Positions 957-11,030 of a stretch of 11,060 bases of DNA are shown piece by piece. Position numbers and translations under genes: made by a program. Every line of letters begins with the position of its first letter. Position 1 is the first letter of the stretch. The notes below the pieces were generated by a model. That model searched no databases and was not told the origin of the DNA. It worked only from the letters and a program-made list of their open reading frames with translations. Source of the stretch: Elusimicrobiota bacterium (GTDB taxonomy: Bacteria; Elusimicrobiota; Elusimicrobia; Elusimicrobiales; UBA9959); the NCBI GenBank assembly GCA_003500765.1, contig DNQL01000050.1, positions 1 through 11,060 on the forward strand, given 5' to 3'.

Positions 957-965
957 ACTGCCTCC
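954..965 (-). promoter_or_regulatory. Shine-Dalgarno plus TTG start of endonuclease paralog 1
   Basis: On the minus strand GGAGG (965-961) is followed by CAGT and the TTG start (956-954). No ATG or GTG lies near. The same GGAGGCAG-(T/C)-(T/C)TGA arrangement recurs before the second paralog, which supports both non-ATG starts. Confidence 0.75.
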
Positions 966-2008: not shown

Positions 2009-2017
2009 GCTGCCTCC
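2006..2017 (-). promoter_or_regulatory. Shine-Dalgarno plus CTG start of endonuclease paralog 2
   Basis: On the minus strand GGAGG (2017-2013), then CAGC, then CTG (2008-2006). Between an upstream in-frame stop and the ATG at 1813 there is no ATG, GTG or TTG that would give a signal peptide. CTG is a rare bacterial start. The parallel with the TTG start of the neighbour is the main support. Confidence 0.65.
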
Positions 2018-2062: not shown

Positions 2063-2707
2063 TTATTGACCCGCGACAAGCCCGCGTATGCCTTCCCATA
2101 TGATCTGCACGCCTATCGCGAGAAGGATGAAGGCGGAGATCTTCGAGATGACCTGGGCCCCGGCGCGGCCCAGTTTGGGGAGTATGCTGTCGCAATAACG
2201 GTAGAAGATGAAGACCGCCAGCGCGGCCAGGGCTATGCCGGCGGCGTCGCCGGCGAATTTCAGCCAGGTGGAACCGGCCAGCAGCGACCCGGTCGGCACC
2301 AGCGTCAGCGTCACGGCTATGGAGCCCGGGCCGGCGGTGACGGGCATGGTCATGGGGAAGAAGGCGCGCGAGGTCATCCGCGACTGGAGTTCCTCCTGCT
2401 CTTCGCGGGAGAACTTGGGCTCGCTGTTGAGCATCTTCCACGCGGTATTGAAAAGGAGCAGTCCGCCGGCGACCCGTATCACGGGAATGGAGATGCCGAA
2501 GATCTTGAGCATCCAGCCGCCGCCTACCAGCACGGCAAGGAGGAAGAGGAAGGTGTAGCGGCCCACCAGGCCCGCGAGGCGGTGACGGTCCGGGGAGGGA
2601 AGCGAAGCTGTCATCTCCATGAAGATCGGGGCCATGGCCGGAGGATTCAGTATAGGAAAGAGGGCCAGGAAGGCCAGGGCGGCGGAATCGAAGAAGAAGT
2701 GGTGCAT
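2063..2707 (-). CDS. MarC family integral membrane protein
   Basis: A polytopic inner-membrane protein of the MarC (UPF0056) family, 214 aa, the usual family length. About six hydrophobic segments can be seen, roughly at residues 8-29, 48-68, 72-92, 115-137, 150-170 and 186-207. Family landmarks are the ILNPPAMAPIF stretch in the first segment (19-29) and FFPMTMPVTAGPGSIA (116-131) after the charged loop at 95-112. The biochemical function of the family is unsettled; an early link to multiple antibiotic resistance in E. coli was not upheld. The ATG at 2707 has no Shine-Dalgarno, but a GATAAT -10 box ends 6 nt upstream, so the mRNA is probably leaderless. It is divergent from the helicase operon. 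The family call is strong; the role is unknown. Confidence 0.92.
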   Translation of the reverse strand: MHHFFFDSAALAFLALFPILNPPAMAPIFMEMTASLPSPDRHRLAGLVGRYTFLFLLAVLVGGGWMLKIFGISIPVIRVAGGLLLFNTAWKMLNSEPKFSREEQEELQSRMTSRAFFPMTMPVTAGPGSIAVTLTLVPTGSLLAGSTWLKFAGDAAGIALAALAVFIFYRYCDSILPKLGRAGAQVISKISAFILLAIGVQIIWEGIRGLVAGQ

Positions 2708-2713
2708 AAGGAT

Positions 2714-2719
2714 ATTATC
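2714..2719 (-). promoter_or_regulatory. -10 box GATAAT, leaderless start of MarC-family gene
   Basis: GATAAT (minus 2719-2714) is preceded by TGG, giving an extended -10 (TGn). The last base lies 7 positions before 2707, so the predicted +1 is the A of the ATG itself. There is no recognisable -35 in the GC-rich stretch upstream and no ribosome-binding site. Confidence 0.6.
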
Positions 2720-2781
2720 CCAAAAACGCGGCCGGGGCCGCCACCGCGGACTTTCCCGTGGCTATTGCCGTCCATATATGG

Positions 2782-2787
2782 GATAAT
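2782..2787 (+). promoter_or_regulatory. -10 box GATAAT, leaderless start of helicase operon
   Basis: GATAAT (2782-2787), again preceded by TGG (extended -10), ends 5 bases before the ATG at 2793. A transcript would begin at or within a base of the start codon. No Shine-Dalgarno is possible in the 5-nt gap. The octamer GGGATAAT is shared with the divergent MarC-family promoter. There is no clear -35. Confidence 0.6.
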
Positions 2788-2792
2788 TGAGT

Positions 2793-4025
<1,233 letters not shown>

Positions 4026-4028
4026 CCG

Positions 4029-5447
4029 ATGGCAGCGCCGGCGGAGCCCGCCCGGATAACGTTCCACGGCGCGGCCGGTGAAGTCACCGGGTCACGCCAC
4101 CTGCTCGAGGCCGCGGGCGTCCGCCTGCTCTTTGACTGCGGCCTGTTCCAGGGGCGCCGCGCCGAAGCGGCGGCCAAGAACCGGAATTCTCCTTTCGAAC
4201 CCTCGTCGATCTCAGCGGTCTTCCTCTCGCACGCGCACATAGACCATTGCGGCCTGCTGCCGCGCCTGGCCGGAGACGGCTTCAGGGGCCCCGTCTACGC
4301 CACCCGCGAGACCGCCGACCTGGTCGCCATAATGCTGGCCGATTCGGCCCGCCTTCAGGAGATGGACGCCAAGTTCTTCAACAAGGTCCACGCGGCCGAC
4401 GGCGAGCGCATAGAGCCGCTCTACGGCGAGAAGGAGGCCGACCTGGCCCTCTCACTGCTGCGCCCCTGCGGCCCCGGCGAGATGTTAAGCCCGTCGGCCG
4501 GGCTGCACTCCCGCTTTCTCAACGCCGGCCATGTCCTCGGCTCGGCGATGATACAAACCGATTTCGAAACCCCGGCGGGATCCCGCAGGCTGCTCTACAC
4601 CGGCGACCTCGGCCGGAGGGAAGTCCCTCTCATGCGGCCGCCTGAGCCGCCCGCGGACGTGGACTACCTGGTCATTGAATCGACCTACGGCGGCCGCACG
4701 CACGAACCATCTTCCGAGATCGACGCCCGGCTCGGTCAGCTGCTGCACAAAGCGGCCGCCGAAAAGGGGAAGATAATCATACCCGCCTTCGCCCTGGAGC
4801 GCTCCCAGGAACTGATAGTCGCGCTCGACAGGCTGCGCAACGATCCCTCGATGCCCGAGATCCCCGTTTACGTCGACAGCCCGATGGCCATAAACATAAC
4901 CGAGGTGTTCAACAAACACCTTGAGGGATTCAGCTTCGACCGCGAATTCAAGGCCTACGCCCGCAAGGACGGGGACCCTTTCGGCTTCGATTTCATAAAG
5001 TACGCCAGGTCCAAGGAAGAATCCCAGGCCCTCAACAGCCGTCCCGGGCCGATGATAATCATTTCCGCGTCCGGCATGTGCGAAGGCGGAAGGATCCTCC
5101 ATCACCTGCGCAACAATATCGCGGATCCTTCGGCCACCGTCCTCATCGTAGGCTACCAGGCCGCCGGCACCCTCGGCCGCCGCCTTCAGGACGGCCAGAA
5201 GAAAGTCCGCATCTTCGGCCTGCAGCATGAGGTAGCGGCCGAGATAAAGACGATGCCTCATTTTTCCTCGCACGCCGACAGGGAAGACCTGCTCGCTTTC
5301 GTTAAAGGCCTGAACAGGAAGCCGAGGAAGATATTCCTTGTGCACGGCGAGGACTCGCAGCGCGACGCGCTGGCGGAAGCGCTCGGGACCGCGGGATTCG
5401 GCGGCATAGAGAAGCCGCGGCTCGGACAGTCCTTCGTTCTGGATTAA
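4029..5447 (+). CDS. MBL-fold/beta-CASP ribonuclease-like protein
   Basis: A metallo-beta-lactamase-fold RNA nuclease of the beta-CASP group (CPSF-73, TTHA0252 and RNase J relatives), 472 aa, cytoplasmic. It shows the zinc motifs SHAHIDH (67-73), NAGHVLG (165-171, His168) and TGDLG (191-195, Asp193). Beta-CASP motif A is ESTYG (217-221), followed by the beta-CASP insert (about 240-375) with PAFALERSQE (252-261) and SASGMCEGGR (346-355). The C-terminal RMMBL part has SSHADRED (413-420) and VHGE (438-441). All metal ligands appear intact. The ATG at 4029 follows GGAGGAG (4015-4021), which lies inside the helicase's last codons. Translational coupling with the helicase, 3 nt away, suggests the two act together in RNA turnover, as helicases do with decay nucleases elsewhere. 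The family call is strong; endo- versus exonuclease activity and substrate are not shown. Confidence 0.95.
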   Translation: MAAPAEPARITFHGAAGEVTGSRHLLEAAGVRLLFDCGLFQGRRAEAAAKNRNSPFEPSSISAVFLSHAHIDHCGLLPRLAGDGFRGPVYATRETADLVAIMLADSARLQEMDAKFFNKVHAADGERIEPLYGEKEADLALSLLRPCGPGEMLSPSAGLHSRFLNAGHVLGSAMIQTDFETPAGSRRLLYTGDLGRREVPLMRPPEPPADVDYLVIESTYGGRTHEPSSEIDARLGQLLHKAAAEKGKIIIPAFALERSQELIVALDRLRNDPSMPEIPVYVDSPMAINITEVFNKHLEGFSFDREFKAYARKDGDPFGFDFIKYARSKEESQALNSRPGPMIIISASGMCEGGRILHHLRNNIADPSATVLIVGYQAAGTLGRRLQDGQKKVRIFGLQHEVAAEIKTMPHFSSHADREDLLAFVKGLNRKPRKIFLVHGEDSQRDALAEALGTAGFGGIEKPRLGQSFVLD

Positions 5448-5461
5448 AAGAGGTGGAGCGG

Positions 5462-7072
5462 ATGAAACTCTCGCGCCTGTTCTCCAAAGGCGATTTTTCC
5501 GGCTTCTGGGCCCTGCTGGCCGACAACCTGGCCAATATCGTCATCATAGCCGGCGTCTGCAAGGGCGTATTCAAGATGCCCGACGAGGTGGTATTCGGCA
5601 GGATAGTCCCCGGGATAGGCGTGGCCCTGCTGGCCGGTACGGCCGCCTACGCCTGGATGGCGATGCGCCTGGCGGAACGCGAAGGCCGCGATGACGTGAC
5701 GGCCCTGCCCTACGGCATCTCGACCCCCATAATGTTCGTCTACCTCTTCGGCGTAATCGGCCCGGTCTACTTCAAGACGGGCGATCCCGTAGCGGCCTGG
5801 CAATGCGGCATCGCCGCGGCCTTCATCGGCGGCCTGCTGGAGATGGCGGGGGGATTCGTCGGGCCCTGGATAAAGCGCCATACTCCGCGCGCCGGAATGC
5901 TGGGGACGCTGGCGGGCATAGCCATAGTCTGGATCGCGACGATACCTTTCGCCGAGATAATGGAACACCCGCTGATAGGATTCATCTCTCTCTCTATAAT
6001 ACTCCTGGGGCTGGTGGCCGGCGTGCGGCTGCCTTTCGGCCTGCCCGCGGGCCTGGCGGCCATACTGGACGGCACGGCGGTAGCGCTGGCCACCGGCGCG
6101 TCAAAGATCTCCGCGGCGGGGATAGGCTTCCACCCGCCGCTGCTGCTGCCCGCCGACCTGATCTCGGGGCTGAAGCTTGTCATGAACAACCCGGCGATAA
6201 TAGCCGTGATACTCCCGATAGAGATCTATAATTTCATCGAGACGATGAACAATGTCGAATCGGCGGAGGCCGCCGGCGACAGGTACCCGGTGCGCCGGGC
6301 GCAGATACTCGACGGGCTGGGCACGATAATCGGCGGACTTTTCGGCTCTCCGTTCCCCACGACCGTGTATATCGGCCACCCCGCTTACAAGCGGCTCGGC
6401 TCGCGCAGCGGATACGCTCTGGCCGTCGGCGCGGTACTCTTCCTGGCGGCCGGCTCGGGGCTGGTGAATTTCCTCTACGGCCTTATCCCGGTGGCGGCCG
6501 TGGCTCCTATACTGGTGTTCATCGCGATGATCATAACCGCCCAGGCCTATATCTGTGTGAAGCCCTCTCACGCGCTGGCCGTCTCGATAGCGCTGGTGCC
6601 GCATATAGCCGACCTGGTCTATAAGCAGGTCAGCGGCGCGATAAGCGGCGTCGGCGGCTACGCGGCGGGACTGGCCGGGACCGGAGAGGCGGGAGGCTTT
6701 CTTTCTGGACTGGCGGCCGGAACCGTTCCGCAGGCGCTCAAGGAGCACCTGCTCTCTTCGGGCGGGCTCCACCTGCAGGGCCTGGCGGCGCTCAGCCAGG
6801 GAGCCATAATCTCGGGGCTGTTGTGGGGGGCGGTCTGCGCCTCGCTCATCGACTGCCGCTACGCCGCGGCGGCCTGGTTCTCGGCCGCGGCCGCCGCGCT
6901 GGCCGCTGGCGGCTTCATTCATTCAGCGGCGGCCGGGCTGAACCTCGCATCTCCCTTCTTCTGGTCCTACCTGCTGATGGCCGCTTTCTTCGTGGTCTGC
7001 GCCAGGCTGAGGCTGAAATGCCACCTGGACGACTTTTCGGAGATGATGCTGGGGAAGAGGAAGAACTGCTGA
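5462..7072 (+). CDS. AzgA-like NCS2 nucleobase permease
   Basis: A polytopic inner-membrane transporter, 536 aa, related to the NCS2/AzgA (AGZA) xanthine/uracil/purine permeases. It shows many hydrophobic segments, ALPYGISTP (81-89), the NVESAEAAGD stretch (264-273) with acidic residues expected in the substrate site, and GSPFPTTVYIGHP (295-307). Residues 337-536 give further membrane segments and a basic C-terminus. ATG 5462 is chosen because GAGGTG (5450-5455) lies 6 nt upstream; the in-frame GTG at 5453 lies within that ribosome site and lacks one of its own. It is the third gene of the helicase/beta-CASP operon, 14 nt after it, and ends at a strong terminator. Linkage of an RNA-degradation pair with a base permease hints at nucleobase recycling, which is inference. 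The specific substrate cannot be read from the sequence. Confidence 0.85.
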   Translation: MKLSRLFSKGDFSGFWALLADNLANIVIIAGVCKGVFKMPDEVVFGRIVPGIGVALLAGTAAYAWMAMRLAEREGRDDVTALPYGISTPIMFVYLFGVIGPVYFKTGDPVAAWQCGIAAAFIGGLLEMAGGFVGPWIKRHTPRAGMLGTLAGIAIVWIATIPFAEIMEHPLIGFISLSIILLGLVAGVRLPFGLPAGLAAILDGTAVALATGASKISAAGIGFHPPLLLPADLISGLKLVMNNPAIIAVILPIEIYNFIETMNNVESAEAAGDRYPVRRAQILDGLGTIIGGLFGSPFPTTVYIGHPAYKRLGSRSGYALAVGAVLFLAAGSGLVNFLYGLIPVAAVAPILVFIAMIITAQAYICVKPSHALAVSIALVPHIADLVYKQVSGAISGVGGYAAGLAGTGEAGGFLSGLAAGTVPQALKEHLLSSGGLHLQGLAALSQGAIISGLLWGAVCASLIDCRYAAAAWFSAAAAALAAGGFIHSAAAGLNLASPFFWSYLLMAAFFVVCARLRLKCHLDDFSEMMLGKRKNC

Positions 7073-7095
7073 CCACGGAGAGGCGCCCCGGACTG

Positions 7096-7122
7096 AAAAG
7101 GCCCGCCTAAGCGGGCCTTTTT
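7096..7122. terminator. Bidirectional terminator between convergent genes
   Basis: An 11-bp perfect stem (7096-7106 with 7111-7121) closes on a CTAA loop, with a T-run on the plus strand and A-run on the other flank. It serves both the permease operon (stop at 7072) and the small secreted protein gene on the minus strand (stop at 7145). Confidence 0.93.
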
Positions 7123-7144
7123 AATGCGGCAAAGCGTCGCGGAC

Positions 7145-7645
7145 TCAGTAAACGGCTTCCTGTTTCTGCAGTTTGGCCGTCAGGCCTTTGGCCTTGAGCA
7201 GGCGCAGGTAAGCCCTGTCCTTCCCGCCCAGTACGGTGATCATTATTTCCATGGTCTCGCTGCCCAGCAGCGGCTCGTTCCAGGCGAAAGGCCTGTCATA
7301 GAGAACGGCGCCTTTTTCGTCGCTCAGGACCAGCCGGCCTTTGAACGAGCGCAGCGTCCGGATGGAAAGGTTCTGGAAGTAGAGGTAAAGGTTCAGTCCG
7401 AACTTGTCGCCCTCCACTACATTGTGTTTGCGAAGGAACTGCACCGCCACGGGCACGGCGGGCTCCTTCTGTATGACGGGAGCGGCGGCCCGGCCGGCGG
7501 CCCCCGGCCTCTCCAGCGCCGTGACGCGCGTCTCAAGGCGCTGCACCCGCACCTCCACACCGCGCACCCTCTCCTCCGTCACTTCGGCAGCGGCGAGCGG
7601 AGAGAAAGACAGCCACATCAGGCCGGCTAAAATAAAAAACCTCAT
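7145..7645 (-). CDS. Small secreted protein with coiled coil, function unknown
   Basis: A 166-aa exported protein that I do not recognise. Residues 1-20 are a signal peptide (hydrophobic core, cleavage near LAAA-E). Residues 24-46 carry regularly spaced Val/Leu among Glu/Arg (VEVRVQRLETRVTALE), as in a short trimeric or dimeric coiled coil. An Ala/Pro linker follows to about 65. The C-terminal 66-155 looks like an all-beta domain, with NLYLYFQNLS and GRLVLSDEKGAVLYD resembling bacterial FxLYD-type or other Ig-like periplasmic domains; that similarity is by eye only. The ATG at 7645 has no ribosome site, and TATAAT ends 6 nt before it, so it is predicted leaderless. It lies 47 nt downstream of the PLD gene in the same direction but has its own good promoter. 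It ends at the shared terminator. Confidence 0.8.
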   Translation of the reverse strand: MRFFILAGLMWLSFSPLAAAEVTEERVRGVEVRVQRLETRVTALERPGAAGRAAAPVIQKEPAVPVAVQFLRKHNVVEGDKFGLNLYLYFQNLSIRTLRSFKGRLVLSDEKGAVLYDRPFAWNEPLLGSETMEIMITVLGGKDRAYLRLLKAKGLTAKLQKQEAVY

Positions 7646-7651
7646 AAGTGA

Positions 7652-7679
7652 ATTATAGCAGGAATGTCCGGAATGTCCA
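7652..7679 (-). promoter_or_regulatory. Promoter of small secreted protein, leaderless
   Basis: On the minus strand: -35 TGGACA (7679-7674, 5/6 to consensus), a 16-bp spacer ending in TGC (extended -10), and a perfect -10 TATAAT (7657-7652). The last -10 base lies 7 positions before 7645, so +1 coincides with the A of ATG. This is one of the best complete promoters in the window. Confidence 0.75.
7661..7678. repeat. Tandem 9-bp repeat over the -35 region
   Basis: GGAATGTCC is repeated twice without a gap (7661-7669 and 7670-7678). Each unit is itself a GGA/TCC inverted repeat. The pair covers the spacer and five bases of the -35 hexamer of the minus-strand promoter. This placement suits a repressor operator, but no binding protein can be named. 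Confidence 0.5.
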
Positions 7680-7692
7680 GAGGCGGCCGGGC

Positions 7693-8835
7693 TCAGGGAG
7701 CCTTGGACGCCGCGAAGAGACGGTCGAATTCGGCGGCGTAGACCTGGACATAATACGGCTCCGCGGTGAAGATCGTGTTCTCCGCGTTCTTTTCCTCGGC
7801 CGTAGCCGACCAGTTGAAAGCGCCGTTTATCAGGAGGGCGCCGTCCAGAACGGCGAACTTGTTGTGCATCTGGCCGCGCTCGGTGCGGCCCGGTGAGAAG
7901 CGCAGGTCGAAGCGGTTCTTAAGCGCGTCGCCGAAGAAAGGGAAACTGGAGCCGGCATTGTGCATCAGCTTCACGCTGACGCCCCGGGAGGAGGCGCGGA
8001 CGAGCGCGGACATTATCGGTTCCGAGGTCAGGGTGAACATCGCTATCTTTATCTCTGAACGGACCGCGTCGATGGCTTTTATTATGGCGGCCTCGGTGCC
8101 GCCGCGGGGGGAAAAGGCGTAGCGCGGGAGATAAGCGCCGTTGAAATAGAGCGAAGGGGACGGGTCCGTCGGGACGGGCCCGGCGGGCGGCGCCTGCGAG
8201 TCGGGGCTCGAAGCCAGCCGGGACTGGTTCCACATCCACTCGAAATTGGCCTGGTAGCCGGCGATGGTATATGGCTCGTAGATGAAGAGCATGTTCTCGT
8301 AACTGGAGGTCTCGGCGAACCAGGTCCAGTTGGCCGAACCGGTCTGCAGGCCCGCGCCGTCGAAAATGGCGTACTTATTGTGCATCGAGCCGCTGCGGCC
8401 GCGGCCGCGCATGACGCGGACGTCCATGCCGGCGTCGAGCAGGCGCTGTATATCGGCGTTGCGCTTGGGGAATACATGCTTGTCGTCCAGCACCACGCGT
8501 ACCCGCGCGCCGCGGTCGCGGGCGGCGATCATGGCCTCCACGACTTCGGAGAGCTGTAGGTTGTAGAGGGCGACGTCCAGAGTGCTGTTAACGGTATTTA
8601 TCGCCCGAACCAGGACGGGGGTTATGGCGGTCTCTTCGGCGAAAAGGTGAAAGGGCAGGCCGGTATGATCGAAGCGGGCTTCGGCGGCGGGCGCGGGAAC
8701 CTCGCGCAGGGGCGAGAGCAGCGGGACCTGGGACGCCAGGACGGAATCCAGTCCAAAACCGGCGGAACGGGCGGGCAGGGAGAGAAGAGAAAAGTGGAGG
8801 AGGAAAATTAAAAAAGAAAAGGCGGTTTTGACCAT
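7693..8835 (-). CDS. Secreted phospholipase D-family protein (two HKD motifs), probable nuclease
   Basis: An exported PLD-superfamily phosphodiesterase, 380 aa. Residues 1-25 are a signal peptide (MVKTAFSFLIF..., cleavage near ARSA). Two PLD repeats follow. The first HKD motif is HNKYAIFD (His152, Lys154, Asp159) with GSANW at 166-170; the second is HNKFAVLD (His324, Lys326, Asp331) with GAFNWS at 338-343. Both catalytic sets are complete, as needed for one bipartite active site. There are no membrane segments after the signal, so it is not a typical cardiolipin synthase; Nuc/PLD6-type nucleases are closer. Lipase or nuclease cannot be decided from sequence. ATG 8835 is chosen over an in-frame ATG 42 nt upstream: the signal peptide starts here and a TACAAT -10 box ends 6 nt before it, so the longer form would begin upstream of its own promoter. 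It is divergent from the GNAT gene. Confidence 0.9.
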   Translation of the reverse strand: MVKTAFSFLIFLLHFSLLSLPARSAGFGLDSVLASQVPLLSPLREVPAPAAEARFDHTGLPFHLFAEETAITPVLVRAINTVNSTLDVALYNLQLSEVVEAMIAARDRGARVRVVLDDKHVFPKRNADIQRLLDAGMDVRVMRGRGRSGSMHNKYAIFDGAGLQTGSANWTWFAETSSYENMLFIYEPYTIAGYQANFEWMWNQSRLASSPDSQAPPAGPVPTDPSPSLYFNGAYLPRYAFSPRGGTEAAIIKAIDAVRSEIKIAMFTLTSEPIMSALVRASSRGVSVKLMHNAGSSFPFFGDALKNRFDLRFSPGRTERGQMHNKFAVLDGALLINGAFNWSATAEEKNAENTIFTAEPYYVQVYAAEFDRLFAASKAP

Positions 8836-8841
8836 GTAGAT

Positions 8842-8847
8842 ATTGTA
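8842..8847 (-). promoter_or_regulatory. -10 box TACAAT, leaderless start of PLD gene
   Basis: TACAAT (minus 8847-8842) is followed by ATCTAC and the ATG at 8835, so the predicted +1 is the A of the start codon. No Shine-Dalgarno is present. The region upstream is GC-rich without a clear -35, but a perfect 10-bp inverted repeat begins at 8871. Confidence 0.6.
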
Positions 8848-8870
8848 TCCGCGCCGGAGGGCCGGCGTAT

Positions 8871-8914
8871 CGGGCATAGGGCCCGGGGGCGCCGCCTATT
8901 TCGGCCTATGCCCG
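8871..8914. repeat. Perfect 10-bp inverted repeat between divergent promoters
   Basis: CGGGCATAGG (8871-8880) and its exact complement CCTATGCCCG (8905-8914) are separated by 24 bases. The element lies upstream of both the PLD promoter (minus, -10 at 8847-8842) and the GNAT promoter (plus, -35 at 8932). It has no T-run, so a terminator is unlikely. A two-site operator or a structured DNA element is possible. Confidence 0.55.
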
Positions 8915-8931
8915 CCTGGGACCATCGGCAT

Positions 8932-8960
8932 ATGACAGGGCGCCCGAGCTTTACTATAAT
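8932..8960 (+). promoter_or_regulatory. Promoter of GNAT gene, near-leaderless
   Basis: -35 ATGACA (8932-8937, 5/6), a 17-bp spacer, and a perfect -10 TATAAT (8955-8960). The predicted +1 is near 8967, two bases before the ATG at 8969. The eight bases between the -10 and the ATG hold no Shine-Dalgarno. Confidence 0.78.
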
Positions 8961-8968
8961 CGTTCTGG

Positions 8969-9442
8969 ATGACTTCGAAAGAAACGGATATCAAAGTGTC
9001 ACGTGTCGCCGGGGAGGACTCTTCCTGGCGCAGGGCCTTCAGGGCTTTCTACGCCGACTGCCCCCGCGCGGACAGGAGCGGCGTTGACCACGCCTATTTC
9101 GCGGCCTGGACGGGAAAGAGGCTGGCCGGCCACAGCGAAGTTTACTTCGACGGCGGTCGCTGGGTGCTGGACGGGCTCAGGGTCGCGGCGGAATTCAGGG
9201 AAAGAGGTATAGCGAAACGACTGACCGCCGCGCGGATACGCTACGCGATAGGAAGAGGGGCGAAAGAGGTATGGTACGCCTGCGACGACGGGAACCTGGT
9301 CACCATCTGCTGCCACCTGCGCTTCGGTTTCAAAAAAGTCTGCCCGGCCGGGCATTCCTGCAACGCGGCTACGGCCCACTGGTACCGGCTGAAAGTCACT
9401 AAAAAACTGCTGAAGGAACTTGACGGCGTCTCTCCCGCCTGA
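8969..9442 (+). CDS. GNAT family N-acetyltransferase
   Basis: A 157-aa acetyltransferase of the GNAT superfamily, cytoplasmic, expected to move acetyl from acetyl-CoA to an amine. The acetyl-CoA motif A is VAAEFRERGIAKRL (72-85), with the R-x-x-G-x-A loop RERGIA, and it continues to the CoA-side strand and helix VWYACDDGN...LRFGFKKV (101-124). The motif-B pattern RFGF is typical. The N-terminal half (10-70) supplies the variable acceptor side. Six cysteines (31, 105, 114, 115, 125, 131), four of them clustered at 114-131, are many for a short GNAT protein. The substrate is unknown. It is a single-gene unit with its own promoter, divergent from the PLD gene and convergent with the AI-2E gene; only 8 bp separate the two stop codons. 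Confidence 0.87.
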   Translation: MTSKETDIKVSRVAGEDSSWRRAFRAFYADCPRADRSGVDHAYFAAWTGKRLAGHSEVYFDGGRWVLDGLRVAAEFRERGIAKRLTAARIRYAIGRGAKEVWYACDDGNLVTICCHLRFGFKKVCPAGHSCNAATAHWYRLKVTKKLLKELDGVSPA

Positions 9443-9457
9443 GGCCTGGCTCAGGCC
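9437..9457. other. Hairpin holding both convergent stop codons
   Basis: GCCTGAG (9437-9443) and CTCAGGC (9450-9456) form a perfect 7-bp stem with a 6-base loop. The GNAT stop TGA (9440-9442) lies in one arm and the AI-2E gene's stop (TCA on plus, 9451-9453) in the other. An alternative stem pairs 9443-9448 with 9452-9457. No T-run follows on either strand, so it is not a standard intrinsic terminator. Confidence 0.5.
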
Positions 9458-10479
9458 GATTCCGTTTTCCAGGTCTCCAGCATCGAAAAAAGTATCGCGG
9501 CCACCACGGGCCCGAGTATAACCCCCAATATCCCGAACGTCCCTATGCCGGCGAAAATGGAGACGATCGCCAGCAGCGGATGCATGTTGGCCTGTCCCTT
9601 CAGGAAGGCAGGCTTGATGGTGTAATCGAGCATGCTGGCGGTAAAACTGATCACCGCGAGGACGATTATCTTCCCCATGTAGCCCTGCATATAAAGGTAA
9701 ACCGCGCCGGCCAGGCAGACGGGGAAACTTCCAAGCACGGGGATCCAGCCGAATATAAATGTGATACCCGCCGCGATGAACATCCCGGGTATTTCCAGCA
9801 GCCAGAACCCGGCCAGCACCGTCAGGGCCTGGGCGGTGGCCGAAGCGGAGGTGGCCCAGACTATGGTGGAGGTCGTGCCGCGGAAAGAGGACCAGATCCT
9901 GCCCCTAAGGTCTATGTCGAGGGGCAGCCGGGCCGTCAGCCATTTCATGAAGGGGTCCCCTTCACAGAGGGCGAAGAACCAGGTCAGCACGACCAGAGCG
10001 GCCTTGAGCGTCACGGCAGGCAGGGCGGCGGCCTGTACCAGTATCGCGGTGCTGAGGCCGGCGGCGGCGTTGCGCAGGAATTCCATACCCTTGGACTGCA
10101 GCGCCGCGGGATTGTCCAGGAAGAACGCGGCGGGCTTAAGGGCCATCACGGAGGCTATTAACTTTCGCAGCAGCGCTCCGCCCTGGGGGCCCGCCAGGGC
10201 CTGGGTAAGCTCTACCCCCTGACTTATCGCGGCGTAAGTGAAGAAGGCCAGGGGAACGATTATCAGCATGAACATCAGGAGAAGAGAGACGGAGGCGGCC
10301 AGTTTAGGCCCGGCTCCCATGGCGCGCAGCCGGTCGTAAAGCGGGCGGGTAAGCAAAGCGAGGATCACGCCTATCAGCAACGAAAGAAGGAAAGGCCAGA
10401 CCATCGCCAGGAAAATACCCAGGAAAACCAGTATAAGCGCCGGCAGGGCCGCCGGGAATTTTTTAAGGTCTTTCGTCAT
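9451..10479 (-). CDS. AI-2E family transporter (PerM/YdiK-like)
   Basis: A polytopic inner-membrane protein of the AI-2 exporter (AI-2E, formerly UPF0118) family, 342 aa, normal length. It has hydrophobic pairs at 11-45 and 60-85, a soluble middle part (86-150) and membrane segments at 150-172, 205-262, 268-286 and 302-333. The C-terminal family signature reads LDYTIKPAFLKG (284-295), HPLLAI (300-305) and FGILGVILGPVVAA (315-328). Despite the name, members have varied proposed roles (AI-2 export, Na+/H+ exchange), so the substrate is open. The ATG overlaps the stop of the upstream membrane gene (ATGA). GGAGG at 10489-10485 lies 5 nt upstream, so the two are co-transcribed and probably translationally coupled. 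Unlike the first gene of the pair, it uses a normal ribosome site. Confidence 0.92.
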   Translation of the reverse strand: MTKDLKKFPAALPALILVFLGIFLAMVWPFLLSLLIGVILALLTRPLYDRLRAMGAGPKLAASVSLLLMFMLIIVPLAFFTYAAISQGVELTQALAGPQGGALLRKLIASVMALKPAAFFLDNPAALQSKGMEFLRNAAAGLSTAILVQAAALPAVTLKAALVVLTWFFALCEGDPFMKWLTARLPLDIDLRGRIWSSFRGTTSTIVWATSASATAQALTVLAGFWLLEIPGMFIAAGITFIFGWIPVLGSFPVCLAGAVYLYMQGYMGKIIVLAVISFTASMLDYTIKPAFLKGQANMHPLLAIVSIFAGIGTFGILGVILGPVVAAILFSMLETWKTESA

Positions 10480-11018
10480 TCTTTCCTCCCGGCGCCGCGC
10501 GCGCCGTAAAAGCCGAGTATGATCCCCAGCGCCAGCGACCAGACGGCGGCCAGCCCTATGCGGAAATCTTCCGGCAGCATGAAGGTGACAGTATGCGCCG
10601 GGACCCAGAACCAGAGCAGCGAGAGCAGGGCCCTGTCTATGCCGGTCCAGTTCCGGCGGCCGTCGATGGCGTTGTCAATAAGACGGTGGACTATGACCAG
10701 GAAAGGACCGAACTGCAGGTTCATGGACAGGGAGACCGCGAAAGCGAAGGCGAAGAGGCCGAGCTGCGCGGGAAGCAGCCCTTTGGCGGAGAGCCCGGCG
10801 ACGAAAGCGGTGAAGCCGGCGAAAGCGTATTTTATGCAGACGGCCAGGGCCGCCCAGCCCAACGCTTTGAGAAGCGCGACCCGCGGGGGGAAAGGCGAAA
10901 AGAACCGGCGCTCGCGCATCCAGGCCGCGGCGGCTTCGCCAAGCGTGCCCAGCACCGCGAACTGGACGATAGCGCTGAGGAGAGGATGCTCCCTGACAAG
11001 GGCGGCGTACGAGTCCAT
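10476..11018 (-). CDS. Small Mpv17/PMP22-like membrane protein (tentative)
   Basis: A 180-aa integral membrane protein with about four hydrophobic segments, near residues 12-32, 49-75, 85-110 and 128-172. The region LQFGPFLVIVHRL (101-113) and the end pattern FWVPAHTVTFMLPEDFRI...W (137-160) recall the Mpv17/PMP22 family (Gly-Pro-x-x-H, Trp-x-Pro-x-x-x-x-x-F, then Pro-x-x-x-Arg before a Trp). This is a resemblance seen by eye, not a firm assignment, and the bacterial members have no settled function. The C-terminus is short and charged (RKE). It leads a two-gene unit with the AI-2E transporter, overlapping it by 4 nt. The ATG at 11018 has no ribosome site, and a TAAAAT box ends 6 nt upstream, so it is probably leaderless. 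Confidence 0.78.
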   Translation of the reverse strand: MDSYAALVREHPLLSAIVQFAVLGTLGEAAAAWMRERRFFSPFPPRVALLKALGWAALAVCIKYAFAGFTAFVAGLSAKGLLPAQLGLFAFAFAVSLSMNLQFGPFLVIVHRLIDNAIDGRRNWTGIDRALLSLLWFWVPAHTVTFMLPEDFRIGLAAVWSLALGIILGFYGARGAGRKE

Positions 11019-11024
11019 AGGCAG

Positions 11025-11030
11025 ATTTTA
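11025..11030 (-). promoter_or_regulatory. -10 box TAAAAT, leaderless start of Mpv17-like gene
   Basis: TAAAAT (minus 11030-11025, 5/6) is followed by CTGCCT and the ATG at 11018. The spacing is the same 6 nt as at three other genes in the window, so +1 is predicted at the A of ATG. The -35 region would fall inside the terminator hairpin next door and shows no consensus. Confidence 0.55.

What the first reader, a model, noticed from the sequence alone, without database searches (positions are those of the whole stretch)
2705..11030. Six transcription units appear leaderless, with the -10 box 5-8 nt from the ATG
Seen: GATAAT (2719-2714), GATAAT (2782-2787), TATAAT (7657-7652), TACAAT (8847-8842), TATAAT (8955-8960) and TAAAAT (11030-11025) end 6, 5, 6, 6, 8 and 6 nt before the ATGs at 2707, 2793, 7645, 8835, 8969 and 11018. 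None has room for a Shine-Dalgarno. In contrast, operon-internal genes at 4029, 5462 and 10479 carry GGAGG or GAGGTG sites. This internal control makes chance unlikely: -10 position tracks promoter-proximal genes only. Known: leaderless translation is common in Actinobacteria and Deinococcus. Inference: this lineage relies heavily on leaderless mRNAs for first genes, and the two secreted endonucleases (GGAGG, TTG/CTG starts) form a separate leadered class.
Basis: partly seen in the sequence, partly recalled or inferred. Interest (0 to 1): 0.75.

Follow-up and report, generated by a model that had tools for sequence, protein, structure and literature searches.

The report
Leaderless genes in Elusimicrobiota bacteria
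In an uncultured bacterium, a minority of genes seem to start their message at the start codon itself, with the promoter pressed against the gene and no leader for the ribosome to dock on; this is known in other bacteria, and within this phylum it looks concentrated in one branch.

Summary
The window lies in an Elusimicrobiota genome. In 643 kb of it, TANAAT before first or divergent genes peaks at one spacing, 6 nt before the start: 11 of 182 genes, mean 0.85 at control spacings, unchanged without the window's contig; operon-internal genes 2 of 245. In the window's genus, 13 of 13 orthologs found keep a box 5-8 nt before the ATG. In 129 Elusimicrobiota genomes the excess is at least 1.5-fold in 53 of 61 genomes of the window's class and 0 of 68 others. 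The PLD gene switches: box beside ATG in 3 of 3 genomes of this genus, GGAGG with TTG or GTG in 3 of 3 of another.

Corrections: "relies heavily" is too strong. The excess is about 14 of 100 divergent genes here, and first genes carry SD-like cores about as often as internal ones (59 of 182, 93 of 245). The 8969 gene probably has a leader of a few bases.

No transcript ends were available: start points are inferred. Known mechanism, in a lineage where my searches found no report of it.

The parts
2714..2719 (-). GATAAT, 6 nt before the ATG at 2707 of a MarC-family gene (2063-2707)
   Evidence: genus orthologs G086 AATAAT gap 6, G143 GATAAT gap 8; g5 ortholog G057 GATAAT gap 5; MarC by Pfam
2774..2787 (+). 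ATATATGGGATAAT with -10 GATAAT 2782-2787, 5 nt before the ATG at 2793 of a DEAD-box helicase gene (2793-4025)
   Evidence: GGGATAAT close to the start in 13 of 14 loci compared, the window included; the 12-mer ATATGGGATAAT occurs at 23 places in 21 of 32 family genomes, 14 of them just upstream of this helicase
7652..7657 (-). TATAAT, 6 nt before the ATG at 7645 of a gene without a Pfam hit (7145-7645), signal-peptide-like start
   Evidence: G114 and G086 gap 6; g5: G110 gap 7, G106 gap 9, G057 no clear box
8842..8847 (-). TACAAT, 6 nt before the ATG at 8835 of a PLD-like gene (7693-8835), signal-peptide-like start
   Evidence: G114 TAGAAT and G086 TACAAT gap 6; the longer start at 8877 is excluded in G114 by an in-frame TAG; SD-led in 3 of 3 g5 genomes
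8955..8960 (+). TATAAT, 8 nt before the ATG at 8969 of a GNAT gene (8969-9442); probably a leader of a few bases
   Evidence: gaps 8 and 7 in G114 and G086; 8, 9, 10 in G106, G110, G057
11025..11030 (-). TAAAAT, 6 nt before the ATG at 11018 of a gene without a Pfam hit (10476-11018)
   Evidence: G086 and G114 TACAAT gap 7; G057, G106, G110 boxes at gap 6
961..965 (-). GGAGG 4 nt before the TTG start (956) of an Endonuclease I gene: leadered contrast class
   Evidence: same GGAGG and TTG in G114, G143, G086; Pfam
2013..2017 (-). GGAGG 4 nt before the CTG start (2008) of the second Endonuclease I gene; TATAAT at 2048-2043 lies 34 nt before the start
   Evidence: CTG, GGAGG and an upstream TATAAT present in G086, G143, G114 too

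Best explanation
These are promoters of the housekeeping (sigma70) type with the -10 box placed so that transcription starts on, or within a few bases of, the A of the ATG. The mRNA is leaderless (0 nt) or nearly so (1-4 nt) and would be translated by recognition of a 5'-terminal AUG with initiator tRNA instead of an SD site. Operon-internal genes and many other first genes use SD. The mode serves a minority of promoter-proximal genes, mostly divergent ones, and is much commoner in the window's class of Elusimicrobiota than elsewhere in the phylum. Shown: box position, enrichment at one spacing, conservation, clade distribution. Inferred: transcript 5' ends and the ribosome step.
For: Sharp peak at gap 6: 11 of 182 against mean 0.85, while gaps 5 and 7 give 0 and 0. 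Internal genes 2 of 245. Adjacent-box ATG genes have an SD core in 0 of 90, other ATG first/mid genes in 170 of 401, over three sets (the SD window partly overlaps the box, so part of this is mechanical). Genus orthologs of all six genes: 13 of 13 found have a box 5-8 nt before the ATG. For each of the six genes at least one genome has an in-frame stop 9-18 nt before the ATG, so no more upstream start is possible there. Helicase site conserved where the flanks are not. N6 against N9/N12 whole-genome counts: at least 1.5-fold in 53 of 61 genomes of the class, 0 of 68 others. The same spacing test on a Deinococcus radiodurans plasmid, a known leaderless user, gives 31 against 17.
Against: No transcript data. 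ATG restriction is only a tendency: among candidate starts of first/divergent genes the gap-6 TANAAT count is 11 at ATG, 1 at GTG, 0 at TTG (281, 134, 81 candidates), but relaxed boxes stand before 6 of 29 non-ATG divergent genes (2 of 15, 1 of 5, 3 of 9) against 61 of 195 ATG ones. Gaps are not uniform: orthologs range from 5 to 10. Tandem first genes show little excess. A genome outside the class, G023, has TANAAT at gap 6 in 5 of 55 first/divergent genes against mean 0.4. My start calls are rough: two of the six window starts were misplaced.
Confidence: 0.85

Rival explanations
1. Short-leader rather than leaderless: transcription starts 1-4 nt before the ATG, giving SD-less mRNAs that are not strictly leaderless.
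For: Gaps 7-10 at the 8969 gene and its orthologs, 7 at 11018 in G086 and G114, 9 at 7645 in G106; in genus relatives relaxed boxes at gaps 6, 7, 8, 9 number 10, 10, 5, 4 of 139 first/divergent genes.
Against: In the window's own genome the peak is at gap 6 alone (gaps 5 and 7: TANAAT 0 and 0 of 182), the spacing expected if +1 is the A of ATG (-10 positions recalled).
Confidence: 0.1
2. Leadered transcripts from a promoter further upstream carry these genes; the adjacent box is minor or unused.
For: Second promoters cannot be excluded by sequence; distal TANAAT boxes exist before other first genes (68 collected over three sets).
Against: The box and its distance are conserved while flanks drift, and no SD core lies before these six ATGs.
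Confidence: 0.04
3. The AT-rich hexamer is a translation signal in a leader, for example an S1-binding site, not a promoter.
For: PMC5397173 (passages) notes that U-rich bias near -10 in some phyla may be S1 sites; T-rich bases lie at -15 to -19 before the box.
Against: The signal has the -10 form at one spacing and is nearly absent before operon-internal genes, which need translation signals too. The T-rich stretch also precedes distal boxes (T at -15 in 83% of 78 adjacent and 56% of 68 distal).
Confidence: 0.01

Closest known systems
Leaderless genes of Deinococcus-Thermus with the -10 motif adjacent to the ORF (PMC12340547; outline, Results part 1 of 3)
   Same: TANNNT box about 6-7 bp before the ORF alongside a separate GGAG class; no bias to particular pathways reported there, and no functional theme seen here.
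   Different: There the motif stands before nearly a third of genes and its common form is TACACT; here it is a smaller minority and mostly TANAAT, in an unrelated phylum. There promoter function was tested by mutation; here it is inferred.
TA-led (leaderless) genes in the 953-bacterial-genome survey (PMC3160421; abstract, passages, section 3 part 2 of 7)
   Same: Same signature: a Pribnow-like signal about 10 bp before the start, in first or single genes rather than operon-distal ones.
   Different: Elusimicrobia are not named in that text (0 occurrences); a member could sit in its row 'Other Bacteria' (8 of 20 genomes). The split inside the phylum is not treated in what I read.
Leaderless mRNAs of Actinobacteria (Mycobacterium, Streptomyces; papers seen only in the listing, Streptomyces examples)
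   Same: -10 box of TANNNT type beside the start codon.
   Different: Leaderless GTG starts are documented there (Table 1 of PMC3160421); here the gap-6 TANAAT peak is mainly at ATG.

Membership tests
Bacterial leaderless (TA-led) genes | -10-like signal about 10 bp before the start codon, above chance | tested here: met
   11 of 182 first/divergent genes with TANAAT at gap 6 against mean 0.85
Bacterial leaderless (TA-led) genes | Found in promoter-proximal, not operon-distal, genes | tested here: met
   15 of 267 against 2 of 245 (P 0.002); a small excess remains at internal genes
Bacterial leaderless (TA-led) genes | No SD site before the start | tested here: met
   0 of 31 here and 0 of 90 in three sets, partly mechanical because the windows overlap
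Bacterial leaderless (TA-led) genes | Transcript 5' end at the start codon | not testable with these tools
   No RNA data held
Bacterial leaderless (TA-led) genes | AUG start favoured | tested here: inconclusive
   11, 1, 0 at ATG, GTG, TTG for strict boxes, but relaxed boxes before 6 of 29 non-ATG divergent genes
   Best three relatives of the 4029 protein are Elusimicrobia MAGs at 61% identity, next 49%

The most novel reading that the evidence does not exclude
Leaderless expression is a clade-level trait inside Elusimicrobiota: common in most families of one class, lost in at least one of them (f4), and weak or missing in the other lineages sampled. Orthologous genes flip between a leaderless ATG start and an SD-led GTG/TTG start between sister genera, so the phylum offers a fine-grained comparison of how genes change initiation mode and what each mode demands of promoter, start codon and leader.
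Probability: 0.45. Interest if true: 0.55.

Novelty: new member of a known kind. Interest (0 to 1): 0.4.

Why it matters
Gene starts in this phylum are predicted from genomes, and a caller without a leaderless model can misplace them: mine misplaced two of the six. The split within one phylum (53 of 61 genomes against 0 of 68) and the PLD gene's switch of initiation mode give a comparison for how leaderless genes arise and are lost outside the usual Actinobacteria and Deinococcus examples.

Tried and rejected
Terminator-promoter fusion. Several adjacent boxes follow a GC-rich stretch and a T run, and the 11018 box follows a terminator-like hairpin (by eye). Folding the 29 bases upstream gave no excess over dinucleotide shuffles: mean z 0.02 (27 tandem) and -0.13 (61 divergent), against -0.20 and 0.06 for non-adjacent tandem and divergent genes (150 sampled of 329 and of 163 for z). 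Raw energies below -8 were commoner in adjacent divergent genes (0.33 against 0.09), which their higher GC explains. Rejected as a general feature.

General -35 box. 5 or 6 of 6 matches to TTGACA in 10 of 78 adjacent and 6 of 68 distal promoters (shuffles 33 of 1560 and 21 of 1360): above chance, but a minority in both classes.

Functional theme. 23 of the 27 adjacent-box proteins listed for this genome (the four on the window's contig left out) matched 48 Pfam families; of the 25 shown only PMT_2 has two members. No theme.

GGGATAAT regulon. The 8-mer shared by the two divergent window genes lies mostly inside genes elsewhere, and 9 of the 23 ATATGGGATAAT places are not beside the helicase; I saw no common gene there. 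Not pursued.

Weak controls. The E. coli stretch (50 kb) has few genes: relaxed boxes 0 of 10 divergent, 0 of 16 tandem, 1 of 11 internal. Deinococcus: 2 of 24, 3 of 30, 2 of 37. G034 and G053 stretches are 80 kb each. Rfam and tRNA scans of the window found nothing.

Literature. ('leaderless' with 'Elusimicrobi'): 2 papers, one read in passages, one seen in the listing only. Searches listed nothing on this phylum's leaderless genes as far as titles and abstract starts show; one search matched 39,214 papers loosely and only 10 were listed, so it says little.
Full report
WHAT THE WINDOW IS. The window is bases 1-11060 of contig C28 in a 2.1 Mb genome of 322 contigs, 78% complete. The best three relatives of its 4029-5447 protein in named genomes are Elusimicrobia MAGs at 61% identity; the next is at 49%. 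Pfam names two Endonuclease I genes, a MarC-family protein, a DEAD-box helicase, a PLD-like protein, a GNAT acetyltransferase and an AI-2E-family transporter; the proteins at 5462-7072, 7145-7645 and 10476-11018 have no hit. The 4029 protein resembles records called MBL fold metallo-hydrolase. The tools give the relatives no names, only kinship, so 'the window's class' is GTDB's class of this genome; that it is class Elusimicrobia is my inference.

All six boxes are at the stated places with gaps 6, 5, 6, 6, 8 and 6. For a genome-wide test I took contigs C1-C80 (643,401 bases) and called 585 genes with a dicodon-based caller that uses no upstream motif. TANAAT stands exactly 6 nt before the start in 11 of 182 first or divergent genes; control gaps have mean 0.85 and maximum 4 (Poisson P 1.9e-9). 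TANNNT gives 18 against 4.08. Without the window's contig the counts are 11 of 175 and 18 of 175. Internal genes, within 25 nt of an upstream gene on the same strand, give 2 of 245 and 5 of 245, small but above their own controls of 0.15 and 1.07. Over promoter-proximal genes (mid included) it is 15 of 267 against 2 of 245 internal (P 0.002).

HOW COMMON. Relaxed boxes at gaps 5-8, against the mean of eight control blocks: divergent genes 22 vs 8.1 of 100 here, 22 vs 3.5 of 58 in three genomes of the same genus, 23 vs 7.9 of 66 in three genomes of genus g5; tandem first and mid genes 11 vs 7.5 of 167, 9 vs 4.0 of 118, 9 vs 4.2 of 74, of which the first and third do not exceed their highest control block. 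SD-like cores precede 59 of 182 first/divergent and 93 of 245 internal genes (control stretch 11 and 23), P 0.26. So the contrast between SD-bearing internal genes and SD-less first genes holds for the adjacent-box subset (0 of 31 here, 0 of 90 over three sets), not for first genes at large.

START CODON. With every candidate start near the called one allowed, strict boxes at gap 6 fall 11 at ATG, 1 at GTG, 0 at TTG, from 281, 134 and 81 candidates. Against a strict rule, relaxed boxes also stand before 6 of 29 non-ATG divergent genes over the three family sets, compared with 61 of 195 ATG ones. I call it a tendency.

CONSERVATION. In the genus, the orthologs found in the fetched stretches number 13 (MarC 2, helicase 3, the other four genes 2 each) and all 13 have a box 5-8 nt before the ATG. 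In genus g5 the picture is mixed: helicase 3 of 3 at gap 5, the 11018 gene 3 of 3 at gap 6, MarC 1 of 1 at gap 5, the 7645 gene at gap 7, gap 9 and no clear box, GNAT at 8, 9 and 10, PLD 0 of 3. The helicase site is the clearest: in 13 of 14 loci, the window included, GGGATAAT stands close to the start in front of proteins down to about 68% identity. ATATGGGATAAT occurs at 23 places in 21 of 32 family genomes and 14 are just upstream of the helicase. For each of the six genes at least one genome has an in-frame stop 9-18 nt before the ATG, so a more upstream start is impossible there. This removes the longer PLD start at 8877 in G114.

SWITCHING. The PLD gene has a box 6 nt before ATG in the window, G114 and G086, but GGAGG 5-6 nt before TTG in G106 and before GTG in G110 and G057. 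The two endonucleases are the leadered counterpart: GGAGG 4 nt before TTG and CTG, the same in 4 of 4 genus genomes; the CTG gene has a TATAAT 34 nt before its start.

CLADE DISTRIBUTION. In 129 Elusimicrobiota genomes, this one included, drawn evenly by the tool, I counted TANAAT-N6-ATG with N9 and N12 as controls. N6 is at least 1.5 times the control mean in 53 of 61 genomes of the class and in 0 of 68 others. Pooled ratios: f1 1.85, f2 2.23, f16 2.37, f17 3.03, but f4 1.02 and f18 1.18 in the same class; outside it 0.95-1.20. From the same sums the mean excess per genome is about 63 (f1), 80 (f2) and 15 (f5). AT-rich backgrounds lower the ratio, and the f5 genome sampled has 5 of 55 at gap 6 against mean 0.4, so weak use outside the class is likely. 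A looser count, TATAAT-N5-8-ATG against the reversed pattern, agrees for this genome (63 against 15). On a Deinococcus radiodurans plasmid TANNNT gives 31 at N6 and 17 at N9.

MECHANISM. The simplest reading is a sigma70 promoter whose +1 falls on or next to the A of ATG, giving an mRNA read by recognition of the 5' AUG; passages of PMC10783764 describe that route with IF2 and initiator tRNA, and list Elusimicrobia with the usual anti-SD tail, which fits the SD-led genes here. Before the box lies a T-rich stretch (T at -15 in 83% of 78), weaker before distal boxes (56% of 68); good -35 boxes are few. Start points and the ribosome step are inferred.

NOVELTY. Leaderless genes marked by an adjacent -10 are established (PMC3160421; PMC12340547). 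Searching 'leaderless' with 'Elusimicrobi' gave 2 papers, neither on this (one read in passages, one seen only in the listing). The 953-genome survey does not name the group in its main text, though a member may sit in its 'Other Bacteria' row. I file it as a new member of a known kind.

Noticed in passing
8871-8880 and 8905-8914: A perfect 10-bp inverted repeat (CGGGCATAGG / CCTATGCCCG, 24 nt between the arms) lies between the divergent PLD and GNAT genes and is largely conserved in G114 and G086 together with CATATGACAG nearer the GNAT gene: an operator-like region, regulator unknown.
   Followed up: partly
2793-4025: Genus relatives G086, G143 and G114 carry two DEAD-box genes in tandem; here there is one. 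Its first ~380 residues match the first copy (about 91%), while the bases before the 4029 gene resemble those after the second copy. This suggests a deletion between the copies, or an assembly collapse.
   Followed up: partly
2008 (- strand): An Endonuclease I gene appears to start at CTG with GGAGG 4 nt upstream; the CTG is the same in 4 of 4 genus genomes.
   Followed up: partly
L251 (G129:C74, near 2294): In one relative the helicase frame has ATA where the others have the leaderless ATG (box 6 nt upstream), and no ATG, GTG or TTG in the short stretch read before it: a possible AUA start or a sequence error.
   Followed up: partly
2714-2719 and 2780-2787: The divergent MarC and helicase genes both use GGGATAAT; in the stretches of this genome that 8-mer is otherwise mostly inside genes.
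   Followed up: partly
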